From positions 62,001 to 126,000 of IMG/VR virus record IMGVR_UViG_3300031884_000002: a stretch of 64,000 bases of DNA; one strand, given 5' to 3'. Origin of the DNA: a virus. Under the pieces are notes generated by a model. The model searched no databases and was not told where the DNA came from. It saw nothing but the letters and a program-made list of their open reading frames with translations. Shown here piece by piece: positions 14,108 to 61,597 of the stretch (its first letter is position 1; each line of letters starts with the position of its first letter). The translations under genes were made by a program, and so were the position numbers.

Positions 14108-14353
14108 TTATTCATACGGTCTATTATCTTTTAAATCTTCAGTTAAATAATCATATACTCTGTCTTTAAATACGGTGTCGCTCAATCCCCACTGTTCCGC
14201 TATGAACTTTATATCGATTGGAAGTGTATTATATATTTTATCCAATTGATTGTCAGTAGGTTCAGTATCATTGTTATGAGCGGTCAACGCATCAATAATA
14301 ACATCGTTGAATGCGTCTTGGTCTGATTCTGAATATTCTTTATATTTTTTCAT
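14108..14353 (-). CDS. Hypothetical acidic protein, 81 aa
   Basis: An 81-aa acidic, mostly helical protein (FNDVIIDALTAHNNDTEPTDNQ). Its ATG overlaps the CoaD-CoaE stop by ATGA, so it is co-translated with that enzyme. Function unknown. Confidence 0.6.
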   Translation of the reverse strand: MKKYKEYSESDQDAFNDVIIDALTAHNNDTEPTDNQLDKIYNTLPIDIKFIAEQWGLSDTVFKDRVYDYLTEDLKDNRPYE

Positions 14354-15537
14354 GATAATCCAATAGATTTAAAAAAGTTTTCCCTATGTAAAATGGAAAA
14401 TAATTCTAATTGTTTAGCATCTTTATTTTGTAAATCATAAATCGGTTGACCTTTTTCATTTTTAATTAAAACAATCTTACCATGTCCAGTATCTTCAATA
14501 GATTTCATTAAACTTCTAACTTTTTGATTATTATTGAATTGAGATTTTAGGCGTCTATTAACATCGGACCAGTTATTCTGATATCTTTCTAATAAACGCC
14601 GAATTAATTCATCGGTAGATGTATCTACAACAATCACATTATTATTACATAGATAATGCATATTACAATCTATAAGCAATGCTCCATTTAGAATAATAAG
14701 TCCTGTTTTACCAGCAATTTGCTTTCTAATTTCTCTAATCATTATAGGCTTATATAAATCTTGTATTTTTTTATTAAAAAAACAATCATTAAATATTGCT
14801 TCCTGTAAATCTAATTTTATAATTTTAAAATATTCAGTCTTATTTTTATCGGATAACATTTCCATCACGGTTTTACGCATATCCATTACTTCAATATTTT
14901 CCTTAAATGTATCGCCATATGTTAAATTATATGCAATTTTATCCATATCTATATGAGTAACTGGTAAATTAGAATACCCATCAATCAATAACTGAGTTAT
15001 ATAAGATTTACCACAACCAATGGTGCCGGTAACTCCGATAATATATTGTTGATTTATTTTAATTTCCAATAATTGCTTGGCCGATAAAGAAACATAATCC
15101 CTAACATCGCCATTGTATTTAATCAATTCTTTGGCGGCTGATGAACTAATTTTAGCATCAATCGGATTAGAAAATAAAACACAAGTATCAACTCCGTTTT
15201 CCTGTGCCACCGTTACTTCGTGTAACATTCGTTCATATTCCGTATCTTTAATATCCCGAATACCTTTAATAATAGTAACAATACCTTTGGAACGAGCATA
15301 ATCGCTAACTAATTGATTATCAGGGAGAACATCAACTTCAAACTCGGTTGATAATAAAGAAGGCAGAGCACTATAAATAAGTCCAATCCGTTCTTCAATA
15401 TTAAATGTATATTTTTTAGCAGGATTATTCGCCACTAAAACAACCACCTTGTCAAACATTTTTAGTGCTCGCTTAACAATGTTGGCGTGTCCCTCGTGAA
15501 AACAATCAAAACTTCCAGCGTAAATACAAGATTTCAT
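14350..15537 (-). CDS. coaDE: Bifunctional CoaD-CoaE: phosphopantetheine adenylyltransferase fused to dephospho-CoA kinase
   Basis: A 395-aa protein. Residues 1-155 are a CoaD-type nucleotidyltransferase: YAGSFDCFHEGHANI (HxGH class), VIIKGIRD-like IIKGIRDIKDTEYE and KISSSAAKEL. Residues about 163-395 are a CoaE-type P-loop kinase: GVTGTIGCGKSYIT and HIDMDKIAY. Together they would catalyse the last two steps of coenzyme A synthesis. The two enzymes are normally separate in bacteria; the fusion parallels eukaryotic COASY in order. It is notable beside an ACP-bearing rIIB. Confidence 0.85.
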   Translation of the reverse strand: MKSCIYAGSFDCFHEGHANIVKRALKMFDKVVVLVANNPAKKYTFNIEERIGLIYSALPSLLSTEFEVDVLPDNQLVSDYARSKGIVTIIKGIRDIKDTEYERMLHEVTVAQENGVDTCVLFSNPIDAKISSSAAKELIKYNGDVRDYVSLSAKQLLEIKINQQYIIGVTGTIGCGKSYITQLLIDGYSNLPVTHIDMDKIAYNLTYGDTFKENIEVMDMRKTVMEMLSDKNKTEYFKIIKLDLQEAIFNDCFFNKKIQDLYKPIMIREIRKQIAGKTGLIILNGALLIDCNMHYLCNNNVIVVDTSTDELIRRLLERYQNNWSDVNRRLKSQFNNNQKVRSLMKSIEDTGHGKIVLIKNEKGQPIYDLQNKDAKQLELFSILHRENFFKSIGLS

Positions 15538-27055: not shown

Positions 27056-29002
27056 TTACAACATTTTCAACAACTCGTTCTGATCAATAATTTTTATACC
27101 ATTCTTCTTGGCTTTAATTGTTTTGGATGATTGACTATTTGGATCGGCTACTACCAAATAATCGATAGATTTAGAAAACGTGTCCGAATATCCATTTCCC
27201 GATTGTTCAATCAATTTATGATAATATTCTTTTTTCTCTGGGAAAGTTCCAGACAAAACAAAAATCAATGCTCCATCTTTAAGGGTAGATTTAGTGCTGG
27301 CAGAAATACTCAATCCATTCTTAATGAAACGAAGAATGTAATCTTTTTTCTTGATTAGTTCATCATTTATATTGGATGCTACATTTGGAAGAGATGATTC
27401 ATTAGCATATTTAATCAACGTGACGCCATCCAACCAATTAGTTAAAGAATCCATTTTACCCTTTAGGGATTCAATAACAATCGCTACACGCCTCTTTCCA
27501 AGAGAAGTTATTCCTAAACTTCCTAAAAATTCATTCAATGGAAGTTTTCTTTTTTTCTCAATTTCTTCAATCAATTTCACAGCACGTTTTTCTCCAAATC
27601 GGGTTCCTTTATCAAGGATTAAATCGGCCAATTCATTTTCTTTATTTTTCAATAAATATAAATCTGCTGCCGATTCAATAAGTTTATTCTTTAATAATGC
27701 TTCAATTACCGATGTCCCAATTCCTTGGATATCCGTCGATTTTACAAACTTTTCCACTTTGCCAACAATCTGTGCGTCACAATCTGAATTTACACAATAA
27801 ATATTGACACTATCATCCCCATTTACATTAGACCTTTTTTCTAATTTTCCATTACAAATGGGACAATGTGTAGGAGTTATAATTTTAATTCTATTTTTTG
27901 CCGGTTTTAAAACTTGACTTATATTTGGAATGATATCATTACATTTTATAATTTCAATTTCATCATTGATATATAAATCAAGACGTTCAATTTCATCATA
28001 ATTATGAAGAGTTGGACTTTCAATAGTAGCTCCACCAATTTGACAAGGAGCAATGGTTGCTACAGGACAAATCTGACCTGAAGCCCCCACTTGAACCTTT
28101 ACGGCTAAAAGTTTAGATGTTGCTTTTTCTGCTTTAAACTTTATAGCAATAGAAGATTTTGGTCTGTTGTTAGAATCTCCTAATTTAGATTGAAGTTCAA
28201 TTGAATTAGCACAACAAATAATACCATCCAACCAATAATTTATTTTAGGTCTAATAATTGCTGTTTTTTCATACCACTCCCACACTTCATCCAAAGTTCC
28301 GACAAAATGTTCTACGACATTAAATCCTAGTTCTTTTAATTTTTTAAAAGCCTCTTCTTCGGTATTTCCGATGGGATTTCCATTTATATCATATAATTTA
28401 AAAGCATAAAAAGTCAAATGTTCGGAATCTTCTCCCGATTTTCGTCGAGCAAGGGAAGTCAAATTACGAGGATTCGACGATTTATTAGAATCAACCTTAT
28501 CCCAATCATCAACATTCAATACAATTTCTCCACGAACAAACCCACTAAAATTATGATTCGTAGATTTAGGAATACCTTTAAACAACAATGCGTTTTGAAA
28601 TAACCGTTCTCCAATTATTCCATCTCCTCTGCTTACGGCATCTACCAATTTATCATTTTTAAAAGTAAGACTTATAGACATTCCATCCATTTTATGGCTT
28701 GCTATAAACTTTTCATTTTTAGAAACTCCGGATTTTAATAAATTATTTTTAATCCAATTATCAAACTCTACACGGTCAACTGCCTTATCCTGTGAACCCA
28801 TTGGTATTTCATGTTTTACTTTTGATAAAATCGTGCCGCCAACATCAAATCCAACTCTTTTCAAGCGAATATCATTGGGATTTAATTTTTTTAATTCATC
28901 AATCCATCCATCATATACACTATCATCTACGATTGCTACACCAATCGTATAATAGGCGTAAGCCGCCTTATCTATTTTCTTCTGTAATTCTAACAATGTC
29001 AT
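27056..29002 (-). CDS. ligA: NAD-dependent DNA ligase
   Basis: A 648-aa protein, close to bacterial LigA (about 670 aa). Domain Ia region AAYAYYTIGVAIVDDSVYD (NAD+ binding), adenylation motif ASHKMDGMSISL with the KxDG lysine near residue 113, SRGDGIIGERLFQNA, OB fold, zinc finger CPICNGKLEK...CVNSDCDAQ, helix-hairpin-helix repeats (STDIQGIGTSVIEALL) and a C-terminal BRCT domain (FVLSGTFPEKKEYYHKLI). It seals DNA nicks using NAD+. Phage NAD synthesis genes elsewhere in the window fit this need. Confidence 0.93.
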   Translation of the reverse strand: MTLLELQKKIDKAAYAYYTIGVAIVDDSVYDGWIDELKKLNPNDIRLKRVGFDVGGTILSKVKHEIPMGSQDKAVDRVEFDNWIKNNLLKSGVSKNEKFIASHKMDGMSISLTFKNDKLVDAVSRGDGIIGERLFQNALLFKGIPKSTNHNFSGFVRGEIVLNVDDWDKVDSNKSSNPRNLTSLARRKSGEDSEHLTFYAFKLYDINGNPIGNTEEEAFKKLKELGFNVVEHFVGTLDEVWEWYEKTAIIRPKINYWLDGIICCANSIELQSKLGDSNNRPKSSIAIKFKAEKATSKLLAVKVQVGASGQICPVATIAPCQIGGATIESPTLHNYDEIERLDLYINDEIEIIKCNDIIPNISQVLKPAKNRIKIITPTHCPICNGKLEKRSNVNGDDSVNIYCVNSDCDAQIVGKVEKFVKSTDIQGIGTSVIEALLKNKLIESAADLYLLKNKENELADLILDKGTRFGEKRAVKLIEEIEKKRKLPLNEFLGSLGITSLGKRRVAIVIESLKGKMDSLTNWLDGVTLIKYANESSLPNVASNINDELIKKKDYILRFIKNGLSISASTKSTLKDGALIFVLSGTFPEKKEYYHKLIEQSGNGYSDTFSKSIDYLVVADPNSQSSKTIKAKKNGIKIIDQNELLKML

Positions 29003-29244: not shown

Positions 29245-30250
29245 ATAAAATTAAAGAATTATTTCCAACTCTCCCATCTCAATTTATTATAAAAATGGAG
29301 CAAGATGTTATTTCAACGTATAAATCCATAAAATCTAATAAACATAAACTGGAGTTTCCGGCTATTAAAAAATCATTATCCATTCAACTTGACAAGCGTA
29401 TCTATAAGTGGATAGACAGGAACCATATAAAAATCACCACTCTAAATAAACAAGCAATCTGTTCTTTTAATGCTTATAATAAATTAAAAGAGATGGACTT
29501 TTCTAAATTAAAAGACCCAAAATTGTTTTATAAAAATAAACAATTTTACTTGTCCTTGATATTTGATGATAATAAACAATTTACTGATAATAACAAAGTA
29601 TTAGGAATTGACTTAGGATTAAAACGAATAGCAACATTAAGCAATGGAATTATATTCAAAGGAAACGAGTTTAACAAACATAAACGTAAAATTAGATGGA
29701 ATAAACGTAAATTACAATCCAAGAAAAATAATTCTCATTCTGCTCGTAAAAAATTAAAATCATTAAGAAGAAAAGAAACCAATTTTAGTAAAAATTACAT
29801 ACATAATTTAACAAAAAATATAATTATAAATAATAAAGAAAATATTTTAGTAATCGAAGATTTAAGTAAAATTAAAGTTAAGAACAAAGGAAAGAGATTT
29901 AACAATCGGTTAAGTCAATTACCATTTTTTAATTTTAGAACCATACTAACATACAAGGCACAACTATATGGAAAAATAGTTGAAACGGTTAACCCTGCTT
30001 ACACCAGTCAAATAGACCATAGAGGATTGACAAGTGGAACACGTAGAGGATGTAGATATTATGGTTCAGACGGAACAATGTTAGATGCCGATGTAAATGC
30101 GGCACTAAATATTGGAAATCGGTATAAAGATAATAAATCTTTAACCAAACACTCCATTTCGTGCTGTAAAGTACTTGATGGACAGGTGAACGTCAACTCA
30201 CCAATCGTCTCTATCAGTCAGAGGCAAGCACCGACCCTTTAGGGTCGTGT
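29245..30250 (+). mobile_element. Truncated IS605-type tnpB element
   Basis: Coding similarity to TnpB runs straight to the left junction (KELFPTLPSQFIIK in frame before the ATG), so about 60 N-terminal residues and the left end are missing. The right end has the hairpin CGACCCT-TT-AGGGTCG (30232-30247). GTTATT is present at both junctions (29239-29244, 30251-30256). The right end is similar to that of the tnpB at 46660 (CAAGCACC...CCCTTTAGGG), so they belong to one family. Confidence 0.75.
29295..30242 (+). CDS. tnpB: TnpB-like protein, 5'-truncated
   Basis: A 315-aa protein with an intact RuvC: GIDLGLKRIATL (RuvC-I Asp), LVIEDLSKIK (RuvC-II Glu) and DADVNAALNIGNRY (RuvC-III Asp). The zinc ribbon is replaced by TSQIDHRGLTSGTRRGC, as in the TnpB at 46660. 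The N-terminal part matches that protein only from its residue about 68, so the RNA/DNA-binding N-terminus is lost and RNA-guided cleavage is unlikely. The 3' part plus flank would encode the omega RNA. Confidence 0.8.
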   Translation: MEQDVISTYKSIKSNKHKLEFPAIKKSLSIQLDKRIYKWIDRNHIKITTLNKQAICSFNAYNKLKEMDFSKLKDPKLFYKNKQFYLSLIFDDNKQFTDNNKVLGIDLGLKRIATLSNGIIFKGNEFNKHKRKIRWNKRKLQSKKNNSHSARKKLKSLRRKETNFSKNYIHNLTKNIIINNKENILVIEDLSKIKVKNKGKRFNNRLSQLPFFNFRTILTYKAQLYGKIVETVNPAYTSQIDHRGLTSGTRRGCRYYGSDGTMLDADVNAALNIGNRYKDNKSLTKHSISCCKVLDGQVNVNSPIVSISQRQAPTL

Positions 30251-37784: not shown

Positions 37785-38073
37785 TTTTTATTTTCGATAG
37801 ATTTTCTTGTTTAATATCTTCTAATTTTCTAAATTGACGAGAATCAAATGCGGTTTCTGTTCCGGTTGGGATATAGATTACAGGACATCCTATAAGTTGT
37901 AATCCCGCATATCCAGTATCAGTGTTATACACCACATTTTTAATTACATACACTGCATTTTCAATAGGAAATCCATCAGGATATGAAAATATAGTTGTAT
38001 CTATATATCCATAATTAGGCAAGTTTTGCCCTGTATTTGCTATACATACTACTTTATCAGATATATTAAACAT
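37774..38073 (-). CDS. Hypothetical protein, 99 aa
   Basis: A 99-aa protein (MFNISDKVVCIANTGQNLP ... YAGLQLIGCPVIYIPTG). The opening again looks like a small beta barrel. Overlaps the CinA-NMNAT gene end by 8 nt. Confidence 0.6.
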   Translation of the reverse strand: MFNISDKVVCIANTGQNLPNYGYIDTTIFSYPDGFPIENAVYVIKNVVYNTDTGYAGLQLIGCPVIYIPTGTETAFDSRQFRKLEDIKQENLSKIKNEN

Positions 38074-39178
38074 TCTTATTCCTCAATTCAGTCGATGATA
38101 TCGGCATATTAAAATTAGCCGCTTCATCTGATTTAATCATTAAATGACTGTATCTATCATCAATTTTAATCCCATTACGACCAAATACTAAAAACTTAAC
38201 ATTTTTACGAGTAAAAAAGTATTCTAAATCATCAACTGGAATGCCATATTTATCATCAAACACTCTAATAAACGTATCGGCACCCATTACAAATGTTATT
38301 TCACATTTAGGATTGTGTTTTTTAATTATATTTATTTTATCTATAACCAAAGAAGCATTAGTAATAATATATGTATTATCAGCAATAGAGTCCAATCTAT
38401 TTTTTATGTCAATTAAATCTATCGTTCCTTTATCTGCGTTTTTAATAGATAATTCAAGTAATACTGGATAATTTAATATTTTTTCAGATAATTCCTTAAT
38501 TTTACGATGCCCTTCGTGATAAGGATTAAAACTTCCTCCAAAAACAGCAATTCTTTCAATGTTGGATATTGATATATTGGAATAATAACCAATCTCTCCT
38601 TTAACTAATGAATATAATTTACCAGCATGTGCTATCTTTAATTCTCCAGTCATGCCCTTATCATCCACATAATTATATTCCCAAATATAATCATCTCCAC
38701 TCATAGAGTCAACAACTTTATTTAACAAATACAATATTCTATCGGATATGTATAAATCTTCTTCTACTCTTGTCATTACACCATACGGAATTGTAATTTT
38801 AAGACATACCGTAAAATAACTGATATGTATGGCAATATTAACTTTATGTAGTCGTCCAACTCGTTCTCCGTCAAAAGCAATAGAACTGGCGGCACCAATA
38901 CCAATAGATTTATCGATATCAATACCGGCAATACGACACTGCTGATATGATGCCAATGCTAATTTACGAGCGGCTAATGGACTGGAATATTCATCTATTT
39001 TAGTTCCTATAAAATTATCAAATATAGTTCTATCATACGGAACAATACATCCAACTATAGTTTTGGATGCTCCGCTAATTTTACAGTAATCCGCAATAAA
39101 TGATTGTCCTCCACCTGATATAGCAACAAATGCCTTGTAAGGAGAGTCGTTAATTTTATTTACAATTCCTTTATCCAT
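38066..39178 (-). CDS. CinA-like domain fused to NMN adenylyltransferase
   Basis: A 370-aa protein. Residues 10-185 resemble the CinA C-terminal (PncC) domain: VAISGGGQSFIADYCKISGA, IVGCIVPYDRTIFDNF, GIGAASSIAFDG. Residues about 208-370 are a NadD/NMNAT-type nucleotidyltransferase: IAVFGGSFNPYHEGHRKI (GSFNPxHxGH), TFVMGADTFIRVFD and ISSTELRNK (SST-x-x-R). The second half would make NAD+ from NMN; the first half could deamidate NMN. NAD+ is used by LigA and the PARP-like protein in this window. Confidence 0.8.
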   Translation of the reverse strand: MDKGIVNKINDSPYKAFVAISGGGQSFIADYCKISGASKTIVGCIVPYDRTIFDNFIGTKIDEYSSPLAARKLALASYQQCRIAGIDIDKSIGIGAASSIAFDGERVGRLHKVNIAIHISYFTVCLKITIPYGVMTRVEEDLYISDRILYLLNKVVDSMSGDDYIWEYNYVDDKGMTGELKIAHAGKLYSLVKGEIGYYSNISISNIERIAVFGGSFNPYHEGHRKIKELSEKILNYPVLLELSIKNADKGTIDLIDIKNRLDSIADNTYIITNASLVIDKINIIKKHNPKCEITFVMGADTFIRVFDDKYGIPVDDLEYFFTRKNVKFLVFGRNGIKIDDRYSHLMIKSDEAANFNMPISSTELRNKNV

Positions 39179-43992: not shown

Positions 43993-46614
43993 ATGATTAA
44001 GCTAATTGACCTTATAGTTGAAAGAAGAAGTCATCCCAAGTTAAATCCGAAAACCTCAGTGGCGTCTCAAATATTAGAGTTTTCAAAACAAGACGATTTG
44101 TTTGTATCATTTACTGCAATTGCCAAAATCGGAATAAATCCAAAAAGTAACTATGATACTCCTCTTGGACTGTATTGTTATCCACTTAAAACCGCATCGA
44201 ACTATTATACTAAAAATAATAAATTAGGAATTGATTTTCCATTTGCATCGGAACATCCATATCTATATGTTCTTAAAAAAAATGAAGGCATTCGAGAACT
44301 TAATATAACTACATATACCAAAGAACAAGGAAATCAAGACATAGATAAATTAATAAGTGTATATTCACATTTTTTTGAGCCGGATGCATTACAAATCCTT
44401 AAAGCTTCATGTAGTCGAAATACGAAATTTTCCAGAGAGCAGATTGGAGAGTTTTGGTATTTTTGTAAAAAACTGTCGGAAATGATTGCTCAAATTAAAA
44501 ATACAAAACCGACCATTATATGGAACATATTATTATATAAGAATCTTGGATATGATTTGGTTATAGATGAAGGAAGAGGAGTTATACATGGAAATGAAAA
44601 ATGTCAAGCATTCTTTACAAATAAAAGAGCATTCAGCGTTTATAGAGTGTTGGATAATCCATATTCCGAAGAAAAATCAGTAAGACGTAAACATATTAAT
44701 TACCAAGCATTAACTAAAAATATTAAAAATCTTAAACAATATATAGAATATAAAAAAGACGAATTAAGTTATAATGATATTACAAATATACTACACTGTG
44801 TTCAAAACTCTCCTCAAGTTGTACATTATTTAGCCGCAAATATCCCATTAACAGAATCTAATATAGATAGTCTTTTTAATAGAACTCAAGATAAACAGGG
44901 ACTTATTGATATTTTACTTAATCGAGATATTCCGCTTACAGATTATAATATAACTGTATTATTATCCAATTCTCCAGACCTAGAAAAAACGCTGGAAATA
45001 TTATTAAATAAAAATATTCAATTTGATGATGATATTGTAGAACGTCTATTGCGGGCTGCAACTGATAAAATAAAAATGGTTAATATTTTATTTGATAAAA
45101 ATATTCAATTAACTAGTAATATAGTGGGGTCGATGCTTACTATAGTTCCAGATAAGAAATATATAGTTCATATGTTATTAAATAAAGATATTCCTCTGGA
45201 TGATATTACCATTCATAATTTATTATCACACTCCCCCGATAAAAAAGATGTAGCAGAGTTTTTATTAAACGTAAAAGGAGTTTTACCAAATGCTATATTT
45301 ACTTCTGACAATATAGAATATATGTTAAAAACGGTAATGGATAAACAACAAGTTGTAGATTATTTATTAAGTAAAAATATAGAATTAGATATGGAAAGTA
45401 TAATAAAATTAATTATAAATGCTCCAAATAAACAACAGATAGGAGATTATATAACAAATAAAGATATTATATTATCACAGTATTGCATACAATCCTCAAT
45501 ATATGATTCGGATGATAAAGAATCAGTAATCAATATGTTTCTGAAATGTGGAATGCCGCAAGATAAAATATTTACAAACGATGTGATAAACCATATTATA
45601 ATCACAGCAAATAATAAAAAACATTCAATTGATTGGTTGTTAAGTCATAATATTGGATTGGATGAAAGTAATATTATTAATATTTTAAGATATTCGGTTA
45701 ATAAACAAGCATCGATTGAGTATATATTAAACAATTATGAAATGACAAAGACGGTAATAGATTATTTATTAGTAGAATCTCCCAACCAATTGGATACGCT
45801 TGATGCTTTACTTAGTAAGAATATTCAATTATCTCCAACTTCTATAAATATTATTTATCAAGCATCAAACGATAAAATAAAAACATTAGAAAATCTATTG
45901 AGTAGAAATGTTCCACTAAAACCTGATAATATATACTATCTATTACATAATTTTCCCAATTCTATGCAAATTTCAGATTATATAATAAATAATGTTACAT
46001 TGAATGGTGAAATTATAAGTTCAATAATTAAATATACTCCGAATAAACTTAAAACGATAGAGACATTACGAAATAAAGGAATTGATATAAATAAATTATC
46101 AACCCCAATAGACACAAATATATTTATAACGGCTGTAAATAAACAAGAAAACCTAGACGCATTATTAAAATCGGGAATGTCAATAAATACTATATTTAGC
46201 GATGAAAACGTAGAAGAATTATTAAATAATTCATATAATAGGGATGATTTGGTTGAATTTTTATTAAACAATAATGTACCTCTAACTTCTAACAATGTTA
46301 GTAACTTAATCAGGTATTCCTCTCATAGTCAAAAACCAAAAACAGTCTATATTTTACTTAATCGAGATATTCCACTTGAAGACCCTAAAGTTGTAAGTTA
46401 TATAGTAAACCATGCCCCAAATAAAGTAAAAACGTTAGACATGTTATTAGACAAAAATATAAAAATATCAAAAGACCAAATAGACGACTTATTTGCATAT
46501 TCGACTTGCTCAGAAACTAACGAGCTTATAAAGTATTTTAAATTTAATGATTTACCTCTTCCAACCGGATATATAGACGAACGACTCCATATATATAAAG
46601 AATATTATAGTTGA
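43993..46614 (+). CDS. Large protein: phage ART-like N-domain plus helical repeats
   Basis: An 873-aa protein. Residues 1-230 resemble a domain common in large phages and thought to be ADP-ribosyltransferase-like (ASEHPYLYVLKKNEG; IWNILLYKNLGYDLVIDEGR; GVIHGNEKCQAFF). Residues about 250-860 are some 17 degenerate repeats of about 34 aa with the core hxxLLNKNIPLxxxNIxxLLxxSPDK, predicted as paired helices in a solenoid similar in spirit to ankyrin or PPR arrays. The repeats should bind a partner; the N-domain may modify it. Possibly a virion-injected effector. Confidence 0.6.
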   Translation: MIKLIDLIVERRSHPKLNPKTSVASQILEFSKQDDLFVSFTAIAKIGINPKSNYDTPLGLYCYPLKTASNYYTKNNKLGIDFPFASEHPYLYVLKKNEGIRELNITTYTKEQGNQDIDKLISVYSHFFEPDALQILKASCSRNTKFSREQIGEFWYFCKKLSEMIAQIKNTKPTIIWNILLYKNLGYDLVIDEGRGVIHGNEKCQAFFTNKRAFSVYRVLDNPYSEEKSVRRKHINYQALTKNIKNLKQYIEYKKDELSYNDITNILHCVQNSPQVVHYLAANIPLTESNIDSLFNRTQDKQGLIDILLNRDIPLTDYNITVLLSNSPDLEKTLEILLNKNIQFDDDIVERLLRAATDKIKMVNILFDKNIQLTSNIVGSMLTIVPDKKYIVHMLLNKDIPLDDITIHNLLSHSPDKKDVAEFLLNVKGVLPNAIFTSDNIEYMLKTVMDKQQVVDYLLSKNIELDMESIIKLIINAPNKQQIGDYITNKDIILSQYCIQSSIYDSDDKESVINMFLKCGMPQDKIFTNDVINHIIITANNKKHSIDWLLSHNIGLDESNIINILRYSVNKQASIEYILNNYEMTKTVIDYLLVESPNQLDTLDALLSKNIQLSPTSINIIYQASNDKIKTLENLLSRNVPLKPDNIYYLLHNFPNSMQISDYIINNVTLNGEIISSIIKYTPNKLKTIETLRNKGIDINKLSTPIDTNIFITAVNKQENLDALLKSGMSINTIFSDENVEELLNNSYNRDDLVEFLLNNNVPLTSNNVSNLIRYSSHSQKPKTVYILLNRDIPLEDPKVVSYIVNHAPNKVKTLDMLLDKNIKISKDQIDDLFAYSTCSETNELIKYFKFNDLPLPTGYIDERLHIYKEYYS

Positions 46615-46659: not shown

Positions 46660-47799
46660 CTAAAGGGATAGGTGCTTGAACGGCCCCGAGGAGCGGGACT
46701 TATATTCGTATGGCGTATTGACTGACGCCTGCCCATAAGTCAGATTTGTGGTCTGTGATACGGGATGTTTGGACATTTTTCCAATGTTGATAGCAGCATT
46801 GATGTCCGAGTCATATATCATTCCATTTACTTTAGAGTAAAATCTACAACCTCTTCTTTCACCTTCGACTTTACCCGTTACCGAGTCTCGTTGTGATGTA
46901 TAGGAAGGGCAAACAAACAGAACAGTTTTACCTTGGTTCTGTGCCTTATAGGTTATTACTCTACGGAGTTCAAACATTGGAACTTGTGATATACTTCTTT
47001 TATTTTGGTATTTGTGTTTCTTTCTTTTTATGCTCTTGAGGTTTTCAAGACAAATTGTATCGGCTTCCGTTCGGAGAACGGCATTGGAAATTAGATGGGT
47101 TTGGTTCTTGTTCTTGTTTCGTTCTTTTCTTCGTAACGAATAACGAAGTTTCCTACGGGCACTCTTCGTTCCCTTGGATTTGAGTTTGTCTTTCAAGTAT
47201 CTCAATCTTCGTTTTTCACCGTTGAACTTCTTATCAATAATAAGTCGCCCATCCGAACAAGCAGCACTCCTACGGATGCCGATGTCCACTCCTAATGCCA
47301 ATCGTTGTTTGAGTTTTTCAACTTTGTTTTCAAAAGAGAAAGCGATACATACTTTATCATTATCCACATATATTAGAGGGTCTTGGTATGCGTATTTTTC
47401 CATCAACTCTTTCAGTCGTGGATAGACAACAAACTTGAAGGTCTGTCGTTTTCCTGTGGTCGTGATGCGAATAGAAAACTTATCTGGGATTGAGTAAAGT
47501 CGTTTATCCAATCTCATTGAGAGGTTCTTTTTTACAATGAGAGTTTTCTTATGCTTATTGGATTTCGCAGACCGATAGGAAGCAAGAACTTCTTGTTCTG
47601 CTTTGATTATTACTTGGGATGGGATTTCTGGATTTGACTTACGAACATTTTTATACACTTTGGAGTGAAGAACTACAAGAGAGTTCTTTGTTTCTGGTAG
47701 TTGTTCCTTGGAAGCAAGGTTGAATACAAACCTTTCGTATTCAAGCAACTTTTTCAGTTCTTGACAATCTCCTAAAAGTGTGGTATTGTAACTCAACAT
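46660..47799 (-). CDS. tnpB: TnpB RNA-guided nuclease
   Basis: A 379-aa protein with LALGVDIGIRRSAACSDG (RuvC-I Asp), TICLENLKSIKRKKHK (RuvC-II Glu) and IYDSDINAAINIGK (RuvC-III Asp), so all three catalytic residues are present. The CxxC zinc ribbon is replaced by TSQRDSVTGKVEGERRGC. TnpB cuts DNA guided by an omega RNA from the element end, here the 3' region near 46650-46760. The ATG overlaps the stop of the upstream HNH gene by 7 nt. Confidence 0.88.
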   Translation of the reverse strand: MLSYNTTLLGDCQELKKLLEYERFVFNLASKEQLPETKNSLVVLHSKVYKNVRKSNPEIPSQVIIKAEQEVLASYRSAKSNKHKKTLIVKKNLSMRLDKRLYSIPDKFSIRITTTGKRQTFKFVVYPRLKELMEKYAYQDPLIYVDNDKVCIAFSFENKVEKLKQRLALGVDIGIRRSAACSDGRLIIDKKFNGEKRRLRYLKDKLKSKGTKSARRKLRYSLRRKERNKNKNQTHLISNAVLRTEADTICLENLKSIKRKKHKYQNKRSISQVPMFELRRVITYKAQNQGKTVLFVCPSYTSQRDSVTGKVEGERRGCRFYSKVNGMIYDSDINAAINIGKMSKHPVSQTTNLTYGQASVNTPYEYKSRSSGPFKHLSL

Positions 47800-48514: not shown

Positions 48515-48889
48515 ATGAGTGATTTCAAAGTAATAGAAAAAGCGTTTCCGAGCAGAGAACCTGAAAGTGGTATTCCACCAGAAACAAGATGGATTATTGT
48601 TGATGCCAACGACAAACTTTTGGATGATGCTGGTGGTTATGGATACAAAACCAAACAGAATGCTTTGAAAGCGGGTTGGTATAAGTTTCAAGGTGGTAAA
48701 AACAAGATTGACGAAATCAAATCGTGGTGGAAACAGAATAAAGCATTCTCACGAAGATTGAATAGATTTCAGGAAGATAACTTCAAAGAGATTGCTTACA
48801 ACCAAATCAACTTTGAAGAAGAGACAGTCAAAATTGCCAAAGAAATGAACATTGACGGGTTTGAAGTAAAGTTTTTGAAGTATTTATGA
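48515..48889 (+). CDS. Hypothetical cargo protein, 124 aa
   Basis: Start at ATG 48515 (MSDFKVIEKAFPSREPESG). Contains WIIVDANDKLLDDAGGYGYK and a helical C-terminus. Its stop overlaps tnpA by ATGA, so it is co-translated with the transposase. Function unknown. Confidence 0.6.
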   Translation: MSDFKVIEKAFPSREPESGIPPETRWIIVDANDKLLDDAGGYGYKTKQNALKAGWYKFQGGKNKIDEIKSWWKQNKAFSRRLNRFQEDNFKEIAYNQINFEEETVKIAKEMNIDGFEVKFLKYL

Positions 48890-49269
48890 GCCATAGCAAG
48901 TATCTGCTCCAATTCCATTTAGTTTTTTCAACTAAATATCGTAAAAAGATATTGTCGGGAGCATTGAGTGATGACTTGAAGCAGATTATGTATGATATTG
49001 CTAATGAGAAGGATATTATCATCAAAGCAATGGAGACGGACGATGACCACATACACCTAATGGTTGACTATCCTCCTACAAAGTCGGTATTAGAAATGAT
49101 GAATAACTTCAAGTCCATTTCAACATTTAGAATATACAAAAAACATAGAGCATTTCTCAAAGGGCATTATTGGAAGGAAAATACTCTATTCTCTGATGGA
49201 TACTTCGTTTGTTCCATTGGGGAAGCATCTCCAGAAACAATCAAAAAATACATACAAACTCAGGGATAA
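48886..49269 (+). CDS. tnpA: IS200/IS605 Y1 transposase TnpA
   Basis: A 127-aa protein: LLQFHLVFSTKYRKKILSG, the HUH motif in DDDHIHLMVDY, and the catalytic tyrosine in SPETIKKYIQTQG. Y1 transposases move single-stranded DNA at short end hairpins, which are visible on both sides. Length is slightly short of the usual 130-150 aa. Confidence 0.88.
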   Translation: MSHSKYLLQFHLVFSTKYRKKILSGALSDDLKQIMYDIANEKDIIIKAMETDDDHIHLMVDYPPTKSVLEMMNNFKSISTFRIYKKHRAFLKGHYWKENTLFSDGYFVCSIGEASPETIKKYIQTQG

Positions 49270-51287: not shown

Positions 51288-51425
51288 ATGACAAAAAAAA
51301 TAAAATTAAAGTTTAAAGGAAATAGATTTTCACAAGCATTTGAGTTTTTACGCAATTCATTACAAATCCTTTTTACTGGTAAAACTTCAATTGAAGTTAA
51401 CTTAGAATTAACAAAAAATATATAA
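51288..51425 (+). CDS. Small basic protein, 45 aa
   Basis: A 45-aa protein (MTKKIKLKFKGNRFSQAFEF ... IEVNLELTKNI). It ends 4 nt before the PARP-like start and shares its promoter. Function unknown. Confidence 0.55.
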   Translation: MTKKIKLKFKGNRFSQAFEFLRNSLQILFTGKTSIEVNLELTKNI

Positions 51426-51429
51426 TACT

Positions 51430-52704
51430 ATGAGTAACTTAATTAAAGAAGCGAGATTGATCTTTTTGGAGCAAAACGACGAAACTAATTCGTATAAATG
51501 GTGGAATGCTCAACTATATGATGATGGAAAAGTAAAAATTCAATATGCGAGGGTCGGTGCGGAGCACCCTCAAAGCGGAGAATGGGATGGTGGCGAGAAA
51601 TATTTTAACAAGAAAGTGTCTGAAAAATTAAAAAAAGGCTATGTAGAACAAAAAACCATTGGGTCGGCAACTGCTTCATCCACTCCATCAGTTACGGTGA
51701 AAAACTCCGATTTATTAGAAATTGCCAAGAAACAAATTATTAAAACTTCCAATCCAATTCTTGAGCGTTTAATTAAACGCTTGGTAGATTCTAATATTCA
51801 TAAGATTACCAGTAGCACTCAAATTACATATAATTCAACTACTGGATTATTTAGTACACCACTCGGATTAATCGATAAATATGGAATAGATGAGGCCCGT
51901 TTAATATTAGCCGACATATCAACTTTAGTAAATCAAAACAGGTTTAATAATGAATTTAATAAACTAGTATTTAAATATCTTACTATAATACCTCAAAGTT
52001 TAGGTATGAAAAAAATCCAGCCAATAACTATAATTCCTAATAATGAGGCTTTACAAGAACAATTAGACATCTTAGATTCTTTAAGTGCGTCATATCAAGC
52101 ACTTCAACCAACTTCTCAATCTTTACCGCAAAATCAGACAACAGAGGAAGTATTTAAAGTTAATTTAGATATATTAAATGATAATAATGAAAGATCTAGG
52201 CTTAATAATTTTTTTGAAAAATCAAAGAAGTCAATGCATGGATATGATAATATTAGAGTAAAGGAAATGTATAAAGTTGATATTAACACAATGACTTCAA
52301 ACTTTTTACACACTGATCCAAACATAGTGGAAACCTTCCACGGAAGTTCAATGGCAAACGTTCTTTCAATATTGAAAAGTGGATTAAAAATTAATCCTCC
52401 ATCTACAGCAGCCATAGCCGGAAAATTATTCGATAATGGAATTTATGGGTCGGTTAATAGTACAAAAAGTTTAGGATATTGTTTAAACAAATGGTCTCAA
52501 GGTGGAGTAGGTGATGCAGCATTTTTATTTATATGCTCATTCGCAATGGGTAAAACATATACCACTACGGCATATGGATGTAAACGTCCGACTAATTATG
52601 ATAGTATTTGGGCCAAGGCTTCTTCAAATAGATTGAAAAACGATGAATTAATTGTTTATTCTGAAAATAGAGTAAAAATCAATTATTTATTAGAGTGTAA
52701 ATAA
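51430..52704 (+). CDS. PARP1-like poly(ADP-ribose) polymerase with WGR domain
   Basis: A 424-aa protein in the PARP1 domain order. Residues 10-73 are a WGR-type domain (WWNAQLYDDGKVKIQYARVG; the W-G of WGR is Y-A). Residues about 88-230 match the helical regulatory domain (TGLFSTPLGLIDKYGIDEAR). Residues about 275-424 are the catalytic domain: FHGSSMANVLSILKSGLKI with the NAD-binding His, AGKLFDNGIYGSVNSTKSLGYC with the Tyr, and NDELIVYSENRVKINYLLE with the catalytic Glu, so the H-Y-E triad is present. It would transfer ADP-ribose from NAD+, possibly on sensing DNA breaks. PARPs are rare in bacteria and phages. Confidence 0.85.
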   Translation: MSNLIKEARLIFLEQNDETNSYKWWNAQLYDDGKVKIQYARVGAEHPQSGEWDGGEKYFNKKVSEKLKKGYVEQKTIGSATASSTPSVTVKNSDLLEIAKKQIIKTSNPILERLIKRLVDSNIHKITSSTQITYNSTTGLFSTPLGLIDKYGIDEARLILADISTLVNQNRFNNEFNKLVFKYLTIIPQSLGMKKIQPITIIPNNEALQEQLDILDSLSASYQALQPTSQSLPQNQTTEEVFKVNLDILNDNNERSRLNNFFEKSKKSMHGYDNIRVKEMYKVDINTMTSNFLHTDPNIVETFHGSSMANVLSILKSGLKINPPSTAAIAGKLFDNGIYGSVNSTKSLGYCLNKWSQGGVGDAAFLFICSFAMGKTYTTTAYGCKRPTNYDSIWAKASSNRLKNDELIVYSENRVKINYLLECK

Positions 52705-52737: not shown

Positions 52738-52762
52738 GTTAGAATATTAACCATTGAAGGAT

Positions 52763-53614
52763 ATGAATAAAAAACAATTTACTAAAGATACATCACCATT
52801 TCCATTATTAAATAATAAAGAATGGCTATATCAGAAATATTTAGTTGAAAAATTAAATACAGAAAAAATTGCCAAGTTAGTAGGCTGTGCGAACGGAGCA
52901 ACGATTAGTAGAAATCTTAAAAAATTTAATATTCCGATGCGAAGTTATAGTGAACGTAAACGCAATGCTAATGTTAATTATTTAAAACTAAATATGCCAG
53001 TAATCAATGGATCTCTTCTAGGAGATGCGTTTATTACTAAACAACGTATAAAAAATGGAAGTTGTGGAATATCCAAACGAAATATCCATTATAATCATCT
53101 ATTATATTTTGCCTCTAAAATATTGACAAAAATCCCAGAATCAAGAATTTTTGGTCCATATGAATCTTCTACAAACCTAACTCCAAATGGAAAGCCAGTA
53201 TATTTTCTAAATACATTTAAATTACCAGAAATAGCCGAATTGCGAAATAAATGGTATCCGAATGGAATCAAGATTATACCGAAAGATATTGTTTTAACAA
53301 AGGAAAGTTTATTACATTGGTTTTTGGATGATGGATATTCATATTTTTACAAACAGCGGTACAAAACAACCGAGTATAAATATACACGAGTATTTTTTTG
53401 CACAAATAATTTTACAAAAAAAGATTTAGAATGGTTATGTGTAAAATTAAAGAACGAATTTAATCTTAAATTTACACTATCAAAGAAAGGAATTCGAAAA
53501 GATGGAACTCAGTCATATTTATTAAAACTAAGTGATACTCAAGTAGAAGAATTTTTTAAACTTATAGGGAAATGTCCCGTAAAAGAGTTAGAATATAAAT
53601 GGAAAATTGTTTAA
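52763..53614 (+). CDS. LAGLIDADG homing endonuclease
   Basis: Start at ATG 52763 (MNKKQFTKDTSPFPLLNN). An N-terminal HTH (KIAKLVGCANGATISRNLKK) precedes two LAGLIDADG-type helices: INGSLLGDAFIT and LLHWFLDDGYS. The C-terminal half includes FTKKDLEWLCVKLKNEF and LKLSDTQVEEFFKLIG, as in the LAGLIDADG_2 family. A monomeric DNA endonuclease; behaves as an inserted gene between promoters. Confidence 0.85.
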   Translation: MNKKQFTKDTSPFPLLNNKEWLYQKYLVEKLNTEKIAKLVGCANGATISRNLKKFNIPMRSYSERKRNANVNYLKLNMPVINGSLLGDAFITKQRIKNGSCGISKRNIHYNHLLYFASKILTKIPESRIFGPYESSTNLTPNGKPVYFLNTFKLPEIAELRNKWYPNGIKIIPKDIVLTKESLLHWFLDDGYSYFYKQRYKTTEYKYTRVFFCTNNFTKKDLEWLCVKLKNEFNLKFTLSKKGIRKDGTQSYLLKLSDTQVEEFFKLIGKCPVKELEYKWKIV

Positions 53615-54977: not shown

Positions 54978-55592
54978 ATGTGTGATAAAAACTCAAATCT
55001 AAACAAGGCAATCTTGACTCAAGTTCAAGAGTTTGCCAATAACTCAACCACGTTCTCAATCCACGATACTACTGTGGCATTGCGAAATAAGGCAAATGCT
55101 GGCAATCTTAATCTGCCAGAGTTTGAAAATCAAATTGGACAATATAAATATAACATTCCTCATAAGTCGGTGAAAACTGCATTTTTGGAATTGTTGTCCG
55201 ATGGCATTTTCGCCGAAATTGGACTTGATGTTAGTAGCCAATACAACGGAGTATATAATGAATACACCGCTACTGTGACTACTCCTACCCAACCTCCAGT
55301 CTCCATCGTAAGTTCGCCTGTGGCAAATGTTACAATTACAAATCCTCCTTTTACACCTACATCTCAATCGGTTACGGTAAATAAGAAATCCAAACAAGAA
55401 GTAGAATCTAAGGTGTCTAATTATTTGGATAGTCATACAGGGAAACAAGTTTCTATCGAACAAATCCGTGCCGCCATCAAATGTAATGGCTGGACTTGTG
55501 CCGAAATCTTGGATATTGTTAAAACTCAATATCCTAATAATACCCAACTCGGAACGAATTATTATCCTTCTAAGGAATTGGTTGTTGCTTAA
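54978..55592 (+). CDS. Hypothetical protein with two HTH-like domains, 204 aa
   Basis: A 204-aa protein. Residues 1-85 and 135-204 each look like a winged-helix-type fold (FSIHDTTVALRNKANAGNLN; KQVSIEQIRAAIKCNGWTCAEI), joined by a Pro/Thr/Val-rich linker (TPTQPPVSIVSSPVANV). Codon and base use are less AT-rich than neighbours. Possibly a regulator; no family identified. Confidence 0.5.
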   Translation: MCDKNSNLNKAILTQVQEFANNSTTFSIHDTTVALRNKANAGNLNLPEFENQIGQYKYNIPHKSVKTAFLELLSDGIFAEIGLDVSSQYNGVYNEYTATVTTPTQPPVSIVSSPVANVTITNPPFTPTSQSVTVNKKSKQEVESKVSNYLDSHTGKQVSIEQIRAAIKCNGWTCAEILDIVKTQYPNNTQLGTNYYPSKELVVA

Positions 55593-55774: not shown

Positions 55775-57030
55775 GTGAATGCTCCCAACCTCTAAAGAGG
55801 TTGGGCTTCTATCCTAACTTGCGTTAGAAAAAGAGTCCATTCCGACTCTTAAAATATTTCTTGCAGCATTCAAATCCCTACCAATGTTAAGATTACAAAT
55901 AGGACATTTGTGTTGTCTTTCTGACAACTCTTTCTTAACAATGGTTCCGCATCCCGAGCATATTTGGGTCGTGTATCGTGGGTCAACATTTACTACTTCA
56001 CAGCCAGCTTCTACCGCTTTACTATGGAGCATTTGTCTAAATGCTGCCCAACCCGAGTCCAATATGCTTCTATTCAACGCTCGCCAATTGTCATTCAACA
56101 TTTGGCTTGGTCGAATATCTTCCACACAAATATGAGAATACTCGTTCACTAGTTTCTTGCTCAACTTGTGTAGGAAATCTTTTCGTTGGTTCTTCACTCT
56201 ACAATGGAGTTTAACCAATTCTCTCTTGGTCTTTATCTTCGTCTTGTCATCCTTCGGTTTAAGTTTCAGTTTGGAATACTTACCTTGGACTTTGGAAAGT
56301 TTCTCCTGTGATTGTTTAAGAAAATGAGGATTAGGAATAGTGGTTCCATCCGAACAGGTCACAAAGTCAATACATCCAACATCAATCCCAACTGCTCGTT
56401 TCCATTTTCGTTTTTCAATCTTCACTTCAACTTCACACGAGAAAATAGCATACCAATGTGTGCCTTCACGCTTAATGGTCAAGGTCTTTACCTTGCCTTC
56501 CATTGGTCGGTGGAAGTTAATACGAACGTCTCCAATCTTGGACATCCACATTTTCTTCTTTCCTATCTTAAATCCTGTCTGTGGAAAGGTGAAGGAGTCA
56601 TACCGGTCATAGGACTTAAAGCGTGGGAAACCTGCTTTTCCACTCTTATCCTTCAATCTGCGGAAGAACCCAAGATAGGCAAGGTCAAGTCGGGCAGATA
56701 CGTTTTGGAGGACTTGCGAATGGACTGGAGTTTTCAGTTCCATATCCTTAATTATTTTACAACAATCAAAGTGAGTTAAAGTTTTCTTGGTCTTCTTGTA
56801 GTGGTCGTTTCGCTTCTCAAGGAGTTGGTTATAAACGTAGCGACAAGTATTCAGCGTCTCTTGGAGACGGATAGCACTGCCTCCTTTGGGAGACAATTTG
56901 AACTTGTAATTGCGTTTTACTTTCATTCTATAACATACATATCATCCACTTTAAGGAAAATGTTATTTTATTTCTGTTTCCTTAATATGGTCGTCATTCA
57001 TCCCCTTGGCTAAAGCCGAAGGGGCTTTCT
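55775..57030 (-). mobile_element. IS1341-type tnpB-only element
   Basis: A single tnpB gene bounded by hairpins: 55784-55805 (CCCAACCTCT/AGAGGTTGGG, 10 bp) at its 3' side and 57002-57024 (CCCCTTGGC/GCCGAAGGGG) at its 5' side. No tnpA is nearby, so it would need one in trans. The G+C is clearly higher than that of the surrounding phage DNA, suggesting recent arrival. Confidence 0.75.
55814..56926 (-). CDS. tnpB: TnpB RNA-guided nuclease, full length
   Basis: A 370-aa protein with the complete TnpB layout: N-terminal HTH_OrfB_IS605 domain (YKFKLSPKGGSAIRLQETLN), RuvC-I AVGIDVGCIDFVT, RuvC-II ICVEDIRPSQM, zinc ribbon CSGCGTIVKK...CPICNLNIG and RuvC-III GRDLNAARNIL. All catalytic residues are present, in contrast to the Cas12-like protein at 7609. 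It belongs to a different TnpB branch from the two other copies, which lack the zinc ribbon. Confidence 0.9.
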   Translation of the reverse strand: MKVKRNYKFKLSPKGGSAIRLQETLNTCRYVYNQLLEKRNDHYKKTKKTLTHFDCCKIIKDMELKTPVHSQVLQNVSARLDLAYLGFFRRLKDKSGKAGFPRFKSYDRYDSFTFPQTGFKIGKKKMWMSKIGDVRINFHRPMEGKVKTLTIKREGTHWYAIFSCEVEVKIEKRKWKRAVGIDVGCIDFVTCSDGTTIPNPHFLKQSQEKLSKVQGKYSKLKLKPKDDKTKIKTKRELVKLHCRVKNQRKDFLHKLSKKLVNEYSHICVEDIRPSQMLNDNWRALNRSILDSGWAAFRQMLHSKAVEAGCEVVNVDPRYTTQICSGCGTIVKKELSERQHKCPICNLNIGRDLNAARNILRVGMDSFSNAS

Positions 57031-58532: not shown

Positions 58533-59483
58533 ATGAATGATACATCAAAATTAAACCAAAGTCAAGAGAAAGAAAAAATATGGGAAGAAAAAAGTTATAT
58601 AGAACCAGAGAAGAATTACTCGAACAGCAACGTGCCAGAGGAAATAGATACTATAATAAACACAAAAGAAAAATCAATATTAAAAATATGCGACGATACT
58701 ATAACAAAAAAAAGTGGAATATACAAAATAATAAATAAAACAAATAACAAATACTATATAGGAAGTGCTAAAAATATTAGAATTAGAATTAAATATGGTC
58801 ATTTATGGGCACTAAAATCTAAAAAACACAGAAACAGACATCTTCAAAGAGCATGGAACAAATTTGGAGAAGATAATTTTTATATAATGATTATAGAATA
58901 TGTTCCTATAGAATTATTAAAAATTGTAGAACAAAGATATTTAGATATAGCAAAATCAGAAATAGATAATGTATATAACATACAGTTTATAGCCGATAGA
59001 TTAGAAGTAACTGATTATATGCGAGAATGTGTTAGAGCATCAAATAAAAACAGAGTATGGACAAAGGAATCTCGTAAAAAATTAAGCAAAGTTCATACTG
59101 GGTATAGACATACAGATGAAGCCAAACAAAAAATGAGCGATGCCAATAGAGGTAAAATTATTTCTTTGGAACATAGATTAGCAGTTGGAATTGCGACAAG
59201 AGAACGGATCAAAAAATATGGATCTCCAATGAAAGGAACTCACATGTCCAAGGAAACAAAACAAAAACTTAGTAAATCAAGAACTGGAAAATATAGAGGG
59301 AAGGAAAATCACGCATTTGATAATACTATTTATAATTTTATCCATAACAAAACTGGCGAAATATTTGTAGGAACTAGACACGAATTAAAATTAAAAGCAA
59401 ATCTTTGTATTGATAGTTTATATAAACTAATAAATAATAAAATATTTACTTCCAAAGGTTGGGCATTAATATATCCTATTTAA
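58533..59483 (+). CDS. GIY-YIG homing endonuclease
   Basis: A 316-aa reading frame with the GIY-YIG domain from SGIYKIINKTNNKYYIGSAK (residue about 60) to about 140, and NUMOD3-like repeats (SRKKLSKVHTGYRHTDEAKQ; KMSDANRGK; TKQKLSKSRTGKYRG). Closest relative in the window is the gene at 11628, including an N-terminal stretch that is better conserved in the MGRKK frame. Overlaps the 3' end of the convergent dCMP deaminase gene by 8 nt. Confidence 0.85.
   Translation: MNDTSKLNQSQEKEKIWEEKSYIEPEKNYSNSNVPEEIDTIINTKEKSILKICDDTITKKSGIYKIINKTNNKYYIGSAKNIRIRIKYGHLWALKSKKHRNRHLQRAWNKFGEDNFYIMIIEYVPIELLKIVEQRYLDIAKSEIDNVYNIQFIADRLEVTDYMRECVRASNKNRVWTKESRKKLSKVHTGYRHTDEAKQKMSDANRGKIISLEHRLAVGIATRERIKKYGSPMKGTHMSKETKQKLSKSRTGKYRGKENHAFDNTIYNFIHNKTGEIFVGTRHELKLKANLCIDSLYKLINNKIFTSKGWALIYPI
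58580..58738 (+). CDS. Basic MGRKK peptide overlapping the second GIY-YIG gene
   Basis: A 52-aa frame (MGRKKLYRTREELLEQQRAR ... RYYNKHKRK ... RRYYNKKKW). The first 20 residues are identical to the copy at 11675 although the DNA differs at silent positions. It ends where GIYKII begins in the +1 frame, after a run of eight A at 58706-58713. Confidence 0.6.
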   Translation: MGRKKLYRTREELLEQQRARGNRYYNKHKRKINIKNMRRYYNKKKWNIQNNK

Positions 59484-60852: not shown

Positions 60853-61304
60853 TTTAATCGTTTCAGTAATTCTTGTTTTAATTCTAATACTTTATTATCA
60901 TATATTCTAAATCCACCTGAATTATTACAGGCATCTTTCGCAGAATAATCTACCCATCTTGTATATAAATCTAATAATTGTTCGTTAGTTACCAATTCGT
61001 TGACTACCCGCTTTATACCATTATAACCCATGGATTTTTGGAATATTCTATCACTTTTAATCTTTTTCTGTCTTTTTAAGTTTTCTAATGCCAAATCCTT
61101 CATCACTTCAATTGGAAGTTCGTATTTTTTACATCGGTGAGGAGCATCATTATCATTTACTAAAATCCATTTAGTTTTATATTTTCCCCATCGGACATGA
61201 GTAGTTCCACATCCTTTACATTTAGGATTTTCAATATAGTGGGGATATGAATAATAATCATCAACCCACATACTATCTGCGTCCATATCGGCTATATCAC
61301 CCAT
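60849..61304 (-). CDS. Hypothetical zinc protein, 151 aa
   Basis: A 151-aa protein with NPKCKGCGTTHVRWG and APHRCKKYELP (possible zinc ribbon) and a helical C-terminus (ELVTNEQLLDLYTRWVDYSA). Overlaps its neighbour by ATGA. Own promoter upstream. Confidence 0.6.
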   Translation of the reverse strand: MGDIADMDADSMWVDDYYSYPHYIENPKCKGCGTTHVRWGKYKTKWILVNDNDAPHRCKKYELPIEVMKDLALENLKRQKKIKSDRIFQKSMGYNGIKRVVNELVTNEQLLDLYTRWVDYSAKDACNNSGGFRIYDNKVLELKQELLKRLK

Positions 61305-61310
61305 TTTTTA

Positions 61311-61338
61311 AGTTTAACATATTTGACTCAAATGTCAA
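61311..61338 (-). promoter_or_regulatory. Promoter for the 59.5-61.3 kb operon
   Basis: Minus-strand TTGACA (61333-61338) and TAAACT (61311-61316), 16-bp spacer. Confidence 0.65.
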
Positions 61339-61344
61339 TTTAAT

Positions 61345-61372
61345 TTGACATGTAGATTAAACCTGCTATATT
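61345..61372 (+). promoter_or_regulatory. Promoter for the 72-aa gene
   Basis: TTGACA (61345-61350) and TATATT (61367-61372), 16-bp spacer. Back to back with the minus-strand promoter. Confidence 0.7.
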
Positions 61373-61378
61373 GAGAAT

Positions 61379-61597
61379 ATGAAATTAACCGGCAAACTTT
61401 TAGAAAAATATTTGGAGAATCCAAATGGAATGGACGAAGAAGTGAGAGAAGCATTGAAATTGCCAGATAATAGATATTATTCCATTGTTACATGGAGTAT
61501 AAATGAAGCATCAATTGGAAATGTATATGTGTCTAGGGTAGAACGAGTTGTTAAAAATAAAAAAGTTTCAAAATCAGACCAGAAAAGTAATCCTTGA
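61379..61597 (+). CDS. Hypothetical protein, 72 aa
   Basis: A 72-aa protein (MKLTGKLLEKYLENPNGMDE), with a basic tail. No family recognised. Confidence 0.55.
   Translation: MKLTGKLLEKYLENPNGMDEEVREALKLPDNRYYSIVTWSINEASIGNVYVSRVERVVKNKKVSKSDQKSNP

What the first reader, a model, noticed from the sequence alone, without database searches (positions are those of the whole stretch)
51430..52704. PARP1-like enzyme with WGR and regulatory domains encoded by a phage
Domain order WGR, helical regulatory domain, catalytic domain with H-Y-E triad is that of DNA-damage-activated PARPs. It could modify host proteins or DNA ends, or counter NAD-depleting defence systems.
Basis: partly seen in the sequence, partly recalled or inferred. 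Interest (0 to 1): 0.86.

Follow-up and report, generated by a model that had tools for sequence, protein, structure and literature searches.

The report
Phage DNA-break-sensing PARP-like enzyme
A giant bacteriophage carries an intact gene for an enzyme built like the human DNA-damage sensors PARP2/3; such phage enzymes have been noted before but, as far as found here, never tested, and they prove common and in one large lineage paired with the matching 'eraser' enzyme.

Summary
ORF 51430-52704 (+, 424 aa) in a 353,772-base virus record encodes a WGR-HD-ART protein: Pfam PARP 7.6e-21, PARP_reg 2.5e-9, WGR sub-threshold (0.015). AlphaFold2 gives pLDDT 86, and the best PDB folds are PARP1/PARP2 bound to DNA breaks. 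The H-Y-E triad is H304-Y339-E406.

It is not unique. Full-length homologues occur in XacN1, Stenotrophomonas, Klebsiella and Cellulophaga phages; I collected 99 distinct phage PARPs, and the triad is invariant in all 98 aligned. Phage PARPs were reported in 2014 and 2021, so this is a new, divergent member of a known, uncharacterised family. It has Y-A-R for W-G-R, and Tyr for the Asn that couples DNA binding to catalysis in PARP2.

Apparently new is the context. In one large phage clade a TARG1-type macrodomain (ADP-ribose eraser) lies immediately upstream in 30 of 37 loci while other neighbours shuffle; DNA ligases lie near 44 of 99. The window's phage encodes a macrodomain, two ARH-type hydrolases, NADAR, a NadV-type gene and LigA, none next to the PARP.

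Best reading: a DNA-break-triggered, reversible ADP-ribosylation system of large phages. Activity and target are untested.

The parts
51430..52704 (+). phage PARP (WGR-HD-ART), 424 aa
51439..51654 (+). WGR domain (aa about 4-75), with N20-S-Y22-K23 and Y39-A40-R41
   Evidence: Pfam WGR E 0.015 over aa 12-75; family profile alignment to PARP2; model strands E4-12, E23-30, E34-41, E48-53 and helix 55-68
51712..52104 (+). helical regulatory domain (aa about 95-225)
   Evidence: PARP_reg E 2.5e-9, aa 131-220; helices 95-103, 109-129, 150-168, 174-186, 205-225 in the model
52153..52701 (+). ADP-ribosyltransferase catalytic domain (aa about 242-424)
   Evidence: PARP E 7.6e-21, best stretch aa 254-399
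52339..52341 (+). catalytic His304 (HGS motif)
   Evidence: invariant in 98 of 98
52444..52446 (+). catalytic Tyr339 (GIY motif)
   Evidence: invariant in 98 of 98
52645..52647 (+). catalytic Glu406 (NDE motif)
   Evidence: invariant in 98 of 98
27056..29002 (-). NAD-dependent DNA ligase (LigA) of the same phage; possible functional partner, not linked

Best explanation
The gene encodes an active ADP-ribosyltransferase of the DNA-dependent PARP type (PARP2/PARP3 architecture). The inferred mechanism: the WGR domain docks on a 5'-phosphorylated nick or break, the contact displaces the helical domain from the NAD site, and the ART domain then transfers ADP-ribose from NAD+ to itself, to repair proteins at the lesion, or to the DNA end. 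The mark is removed by an ADP-ribose hydrolase: in one large phage clade a TARG1-type macrodomain encoded immediately upstream, in this phage probably its unlinked macrodomain or ARH genes. The likely purpose is management of breaks in phage DNA (protecting ends, timing ligation). Shown: intact gene, fold class, triad, relatives, gene linkages. Inferred: catalytic activity, DNA-break activation (less sure here because of Tyr22 and Ala40), target, and purpose.
For: Three-domain architecture by Pfam, family profile and fold. Invariant H-Y-E in 98 of 98 relatives. WGR residues that contact DNA or signal in PARP2 are nearly invariant in the family: N127-equivalent 94/98, N129 95/98, K130 96/98, R153 97/98 (PARP2 roles from PMC8190142). 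Macrodomain gene immediately upstream in 30 of 37 loci of one clade, while no other neighbour position shares a family in more than 28%; TARG1 homologues lie within 400 nt of the PARP in 34 loci, most overlapping or within 15 nt, and the neighbour's best PDB match is human TARG1, E 7.5e-20. DNA ligase genes within about 9 kb in 44 of 99 loci and 13 of 41 PARP clusters. PARP3 mono-ADP-ribosylates DNA ends, and TARG1, ARH3, PARG and MACROD2 remove the mark (PMC5725667). The same phage carries a macrodomain, two ARH-type genes, NADAR, a NadV-type gene and LigA.
Against: No activity of any phage PARP was reported in the papers found. The window protein has Tyr at the PARP2 Asn129 position, where N129A abolishes activity (PMC8190142), and lacks the glycine of the WGR motif, so its DNA coupling may be weakened or rewired. 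Eraser linkage is concentrated in one clade: a macrodomain lies near the PARP in only 5 of 41 clusters within 9 kb. In the window's own genome the macrodomain lies about 52 kb away and the ligase about 22 kb away. Ligase proximity may only reflect clustering of replication genes.
Confidence: 0.5

Rival explanations
1. Host take-over enzyme in the manner of T4 Alt/ModA: it ADP-ribosylates host RNA polymerase, translation or other proteins to redirect the cell, and the WGR domain only positions it on DNA.
For: This is close to the interpretation given for phage ARTs, including the XacN1 PARP, by PMC7824862, which also reports that ARTs are commonest in jumbo phages without their own RNA polymerase.
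Against: T4-type take-over enzymes are not known (general knowledge) to be paired with an eraser or built with a DNA-break sensor and an autoinhibitory domain; the tight TARG1 pairing in relatives and conserved WGR contact residues fit a triggered, reversible reaction better.
Confidence: 0.2
2. Conflict enzyme: a broken-DNA alarm. Breaks made in phage or competitor DNA by nucleases switch it on, and it then modifies the nuclease or the invader's DNA ends, or lowers NAD to stop a superinfecting phage; the macrodomain acts as antidote in the manner of DarTG.
For: Two-gene writer-eraser arrangement in relatives and weak similarity of the macrodomain to DarG models; patchy distribution with phage and bacterial PARPs interleaved; PMC9503650 reports a few phage-encoded ART toxin-antitoxin pairs.
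Against: The writer is a PARP, not a DarT; the macrodomain is closer to TARG1 (7.5e-20) than to the bacterial macrodomain proteins it hits in the PDB and falls far below the NCBIfam DarG cut-off (45.8 against 250 bits); most PARP clusters have no linked eraser, unlike an obligate toxin-antitoxin pair.
Confidence: 0.18
3. A decaying or repurposed copy: catalysis or DNA-dependence has been lost in this particular phage.
For: Unusual substitutions at WGR positions (Tyr22, Ala40), WGR below the Pfam cut-off, and HGSS where most members have HG[ST]R.
Against: Open frame, all catalytic residues and K346/Y350 retained, well-folded model; the relative L013 (58% identity) shares Tyr22 and is also intact.
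Confidence: 0.12

Closest known systems
Human PARP2 / PARP3 (DNA-dependent ARTs)
   Same: WGR-HD-ART order, H-Y-E triad, WGR Lys/Arg contact residues; best full-length profile match is PARP2, E 1.2e-49
   Different: no long basic N-terminus; Y-A-R instead of W-G-R; Tyr at the Asn129 position; about 17-20% identity in the fold alignments
Phage PARPs: XacN1 BBA65562.1, Klebsiella FBKp34, Cellulophaga phi4:1
   Same: same architecture and similar length; about 25-32% identity over most of the length
   Different: neighbour genes differ; the phi4:1 PARP sits two genes from a DNA ligase; the window phage has a homing-endonuclease gene directly downstream
Bacterial WGR-PARPs (Herpetosiphon, C. difficile CD160)
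   Same: WGR-HD-ART, mostly Y-G-R motif (PMC5966428); Herpetosiphon PARP is DNA-dependent (PMC4245714); interleaved with phage PARPs in the tree
   Different: mostly bacterial genes; the window's four-member clade holds only phage sequences
DarTG
   Same: idea of an ADP-ribosyltransferase paired with a TARG1-related macrodomain (in relatives, not in the window)
   Different: writer is a PARP rather than DarT; separate small TARG1-type gene rather than DarG; no pairing in the window

Membership tests
DNA-dependent PARP (PARP1-3 type) | ART domain with H-Y-E triad | tested here: met
DNA-dependent PARP (PARP1-3 type) | helical regulatory (autoinhibitory) domain | tested here: met
   PARP_reg above its cut-off; helices in the model
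DNA-dependent PARP (PARP1-3 type) | WGR domain with the DNA-contact residues | tested here: inconclusive
   fold and family profile say yes; Lys and Arg kept; Trp is Tyr, Gly is Ala, Asn129 equivalent is Tyr; Pfam below cut-off
DNA-dependent PARP (PARP1-3 type) | NAD+-dependent ADP-ribosylation activated by DNA breaks | not testable with these tools
   needs a biochemical assay
PARP1 in the strict sense | zinc fingers and BRCT domain | tested here: not met
   only PARP, PARP_reg and a weak WGR found
Phage WGR-PARP family (PHROG 23333 and relatives) | full-length homology to phage WGR-HD-ART proteins | tested here: met
DarTG toxin-antitoxin | DarT writer next to a DarG macrodomain | tested here: not met
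   writer is a PARP; no macrodomain beside it in the window; relatives' macrodomain far below the DarG cut-off

The most novel reading that the evidence does not exclude
Large phages encode a self-contained, reversible ADP-ribosylation circuit for DNA breaks, with a PARP2/3-like sensor-writer and a TARG1/ARH-type eraser, often near a DNA ligase, that marks DNA ends or repair proteins to control when phage breaks are degraded or sealed: a bacterial-virus counterpart of the eukaryotic PARP-TARG1 strand-break response.
Probability: 0.35. Interest if true: 0.8.

Novelty: new member of a known kind. Interest (0 to 1): 0.5.

Why it matters
PARP signalling at DNA breaks is studied almost wholly in eukaryotes. 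A widespread phage family with the same three domains and invariant catalytic residues, in one clade paired with a TARG1-type eraser, would give a minimal and genetically simple model of reversible DNA-break ADP-ribosylation, and cultured phages that carry the gene already exist. It would also add a new type of ADP-ribosylation to the phage-bacterium conflict.

Tried and rejected
A single-protein scan of viral contigs with the window protein found no relative, and two alignments were too diverse for that tool; subsets worked. 'Only a WGR regulator' was rejected: a full ART domain is present. 'Chance ORF' was rejected. PARP1 in the strict sense was rejected for lack of zinc fingers and BRCT. 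DarTG membership was rejected. A PARG-type eraser in the own genome was not found, but the control genomes also rang nothing, so absence is not shown. No ATP-dependent DNA ligase was found in the own genome. The macrodomain linkage first looked like 44 of 99 separate cases; clustering showed that most come from one clade, so it is reported as such. Distances between catalytic residues in the AlphaFold2 model could not be measured because coordinates are not exposed. The tree was a quick search without bootstraps, so deep branches, including the place of the human PARPs, are not relied on.

Full report
What is there. The ORF at 51430-52704 (+) is intact and 424 aa long. The window is bases 62001-126000 of a 353,772-base virus record. 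Pfam finds PARP (7.6e-21) and PARP_reg (2.5e-9) above their cut-offs and WGR below its own (0.015). The protein matches PHROG 23333 over its full length (2.4e-46). phmmer against the PDB finds PARP1, PARP2, PARP3 and PARP4. A profile of 46 family members aligns end to end with human PARP2, WGR included (1.2e-49). AlphaFold2 gives mean pLDDT 86 and pTM 0.79 with the expected WGR strands, helical domain and ART fold; Foldseek's best hits are human PARP1 and PARP2 in complex with DNA breaks (1.2e-23 for the first). The large rmsd (about 7 A) in these full-length matches is what a different placement of domains would give.

The active site. H304, Y339 and E406 align with the PARP1 triad and are the same in all 98 aligned family members, as are K346 and Y350. 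An intact H-Y-E triad does not settle mono- versus poly-ADP-ribosylation, because PARP3 and PARP4 also have it (general knowledge).

The WGR domain and its oddities. In PARP2, Lys130 and Trp151 help coordinate the 5'-phosphorylated end, Arg153 and Asn127 link DNA to the regulatory domain, and N129A is inactive (PMC8190142). The family keeps these positions: N 94/98, N 95/98, K 96/98, R 97/98; the Trp is usually Tyr (73), sometimes Trp (16) or Phe (8), as reported for bacterial PARPs (PMC5966428). The window protein keeps N20, K23 and R41 but has Tyr22 for Asn129 (with L013, one of two in 98) and Ala40 for the Gly of the motif (one of 98). So DNA binding is plausible, but the coupling of DNA to catalysis may be altered here.

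The family. tblastn found 15 of 50,697 phage records: Xanthomonas phage XacN1, Stenotrophomonas CM1 and RAS14, three Klebsiella phages, the Cellulophaga phi4:1 and phi17:2 groups and two uncultured huge phages; a second query found the same 15. With IMG/VR scans I collected 99 unique PARPs from 133 loci, the window and the cultured phages included. A scan of GTDB genomes gave 80 loci of WGR-PARPs in Cyanobacteria, Actinobacteria, Bacteroidota, Bacillota and others. In a quick tree phage and bacterial PARPs interleave (starred branches force at least 8 label changes for phage), so the gene has moved repeatedly; the window PARP sits in a four-member phage clade with L013, L014 and L065.

Neighbourhoods. 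Clustering neighbour genes showed that the commonest partner is a macrodomain gene (44 loci), whose representative has human TARG1/C6orf130 as its best PDB match (7.5e-20). TARG1 homologues lie within 400 nt of the PARP in 34 loci, two of them from bacterial genome contigs, most overlapping or within 15 nt on the same strand. This is mainly one clade of 37 loci (lowest pairwise identity 47%): 30 of 37 have it immediately upstream, while the most shared family at any other position reaches 28%; among 8 representatives at 70% identity it is 6 of 8. So the pair stays together while the surroundings change. It is not general: a macrodomain lies within 9 kb in 5 of 41 PARP clusters, and any eraser tested in 7. 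DNA ligases (ATP or NAD type) lie within about 9 kb in 44 of 99 loci and 13 of 41 clusters, which may partly reflect replication gene clusters. In the window's own clade, L014 has a macrodomain-like gene 253 bases upstream, an ARH-like gene 2.8 kb downstream and an ATP ligase 3.7 kb upstream (the macrodomain-like gene matches human TARG1 at 3.3e-5, but not Pfam; the ligase is confirmed).

The window's phage. It encodes a macrodomain at record position 61123-61470, LigA at window 27056-29002, NADAR at 279422-279862, a NadV-type gene at 281008-281748 and two ARH-type genes near 5 and 9 kb. So the writer, several candidate erasers and NAD salvage are all in one genome, but not in one operon. The PARP lies in a stretch rich in mobile elements.

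Mechanism. PARP2 and PARP3 are activated by 5'-phosphorylated breaks (PMC4081085; PMC8190142), PARP3 is a nick sensor (PMC4992063), and PARP3 can mono-ADP-ribosylate DNA ends, reversed by TARG1, ARH3, PARG and MACROD2 (PMC5725667). A phage WGR-HD-ART enzyme, in one clade paired with a TARG1-type eraser and often near a ligase, fits a break-triggered reversible mark on phage DNA or repair proteins. What is shown here is sequence, fold, conservation and linkage; activity, activation and target are inferred. Host take-over (PMC7824862) and a conflict role are the main rivals.

Novelty. Perina et al. 2014 (PMC4245714) listed PARPs in Cellulophaga phage phi4:1 and Aeromonas phage Aeh1; PMC7824862 (2021) named the XacN1 PARP and suggested chains of ADP-ribose; PMC9503650 (2022) counts the PARP family among the commonest viral ARTs. 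None of the passages I read describes the PARP-TARG1 pairing or the ligase linkage, but most subscription papers are not in the library. The window gene is therefore a new, divergent member of a known kind; the cassette in its relatives is the fresher observation.

Noticed in passing
window 52754-53614 (+): LAGLIDADG_2 homing endonuclease gene (TTG start) 50 bases after the PARP stop codon.
   Followed up: partly
window 46660-47799 (-), 55814-56926 (-), 29295-30242 (+), 48886-49269 (+): TnpB/OrfB-type genes and one IS200-like Y1 transposase (the 29295 ORF judged by eye only).
   Followed up: partly
window 58533-59483 (+) and 11628-12812 (+): GIY-YIG/NUMOD3 homing-endonuclease-like genes that share an N-terminal stretch; only the first was run through Pfam.
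   Followed up: no
window 14350-15537 (-) and 2296-3744 (-): Fused nucleotidyltransferase (CoaD-like) and dephospho-CoA kinase, plus a protein with a phosphopantetheine attachment site: the phage may make CoA to load an acyl-carrier-like domain.
   Followed up: no
window 38066-39178 (-): Nucleotidyltransferase (NadD-like by eye) with an unassigned N-terminal half; may join the NadV-type gene in NAD salvage.
   Followed up: no
window 54978-55592 (+) and L014:9607-10236: Related genes, the window one with weak BrxL_N similarity, 2.3 kb and 0.3 kb downstream of the PARP in the two phages.
   Followed up: partly
window 43993-46614 (+): 873-aa protein with many degenerate repeats; only a sub-threshold ankyrin match.
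   Followed up: no
window 51288-51425 (+): A possible 45-codon ORF ending 4 bases before the PARP start codon; read by eye from the sequence.
   Followed up: no
L201:5519-5944 and L203:5536-5970: TARG1 homologues overlapping or 22 bases from WGR-PARPs in Clostridium and Ruminococcus MAG contigs; could be phage contigs binned with bacteria.
   Followed up: no
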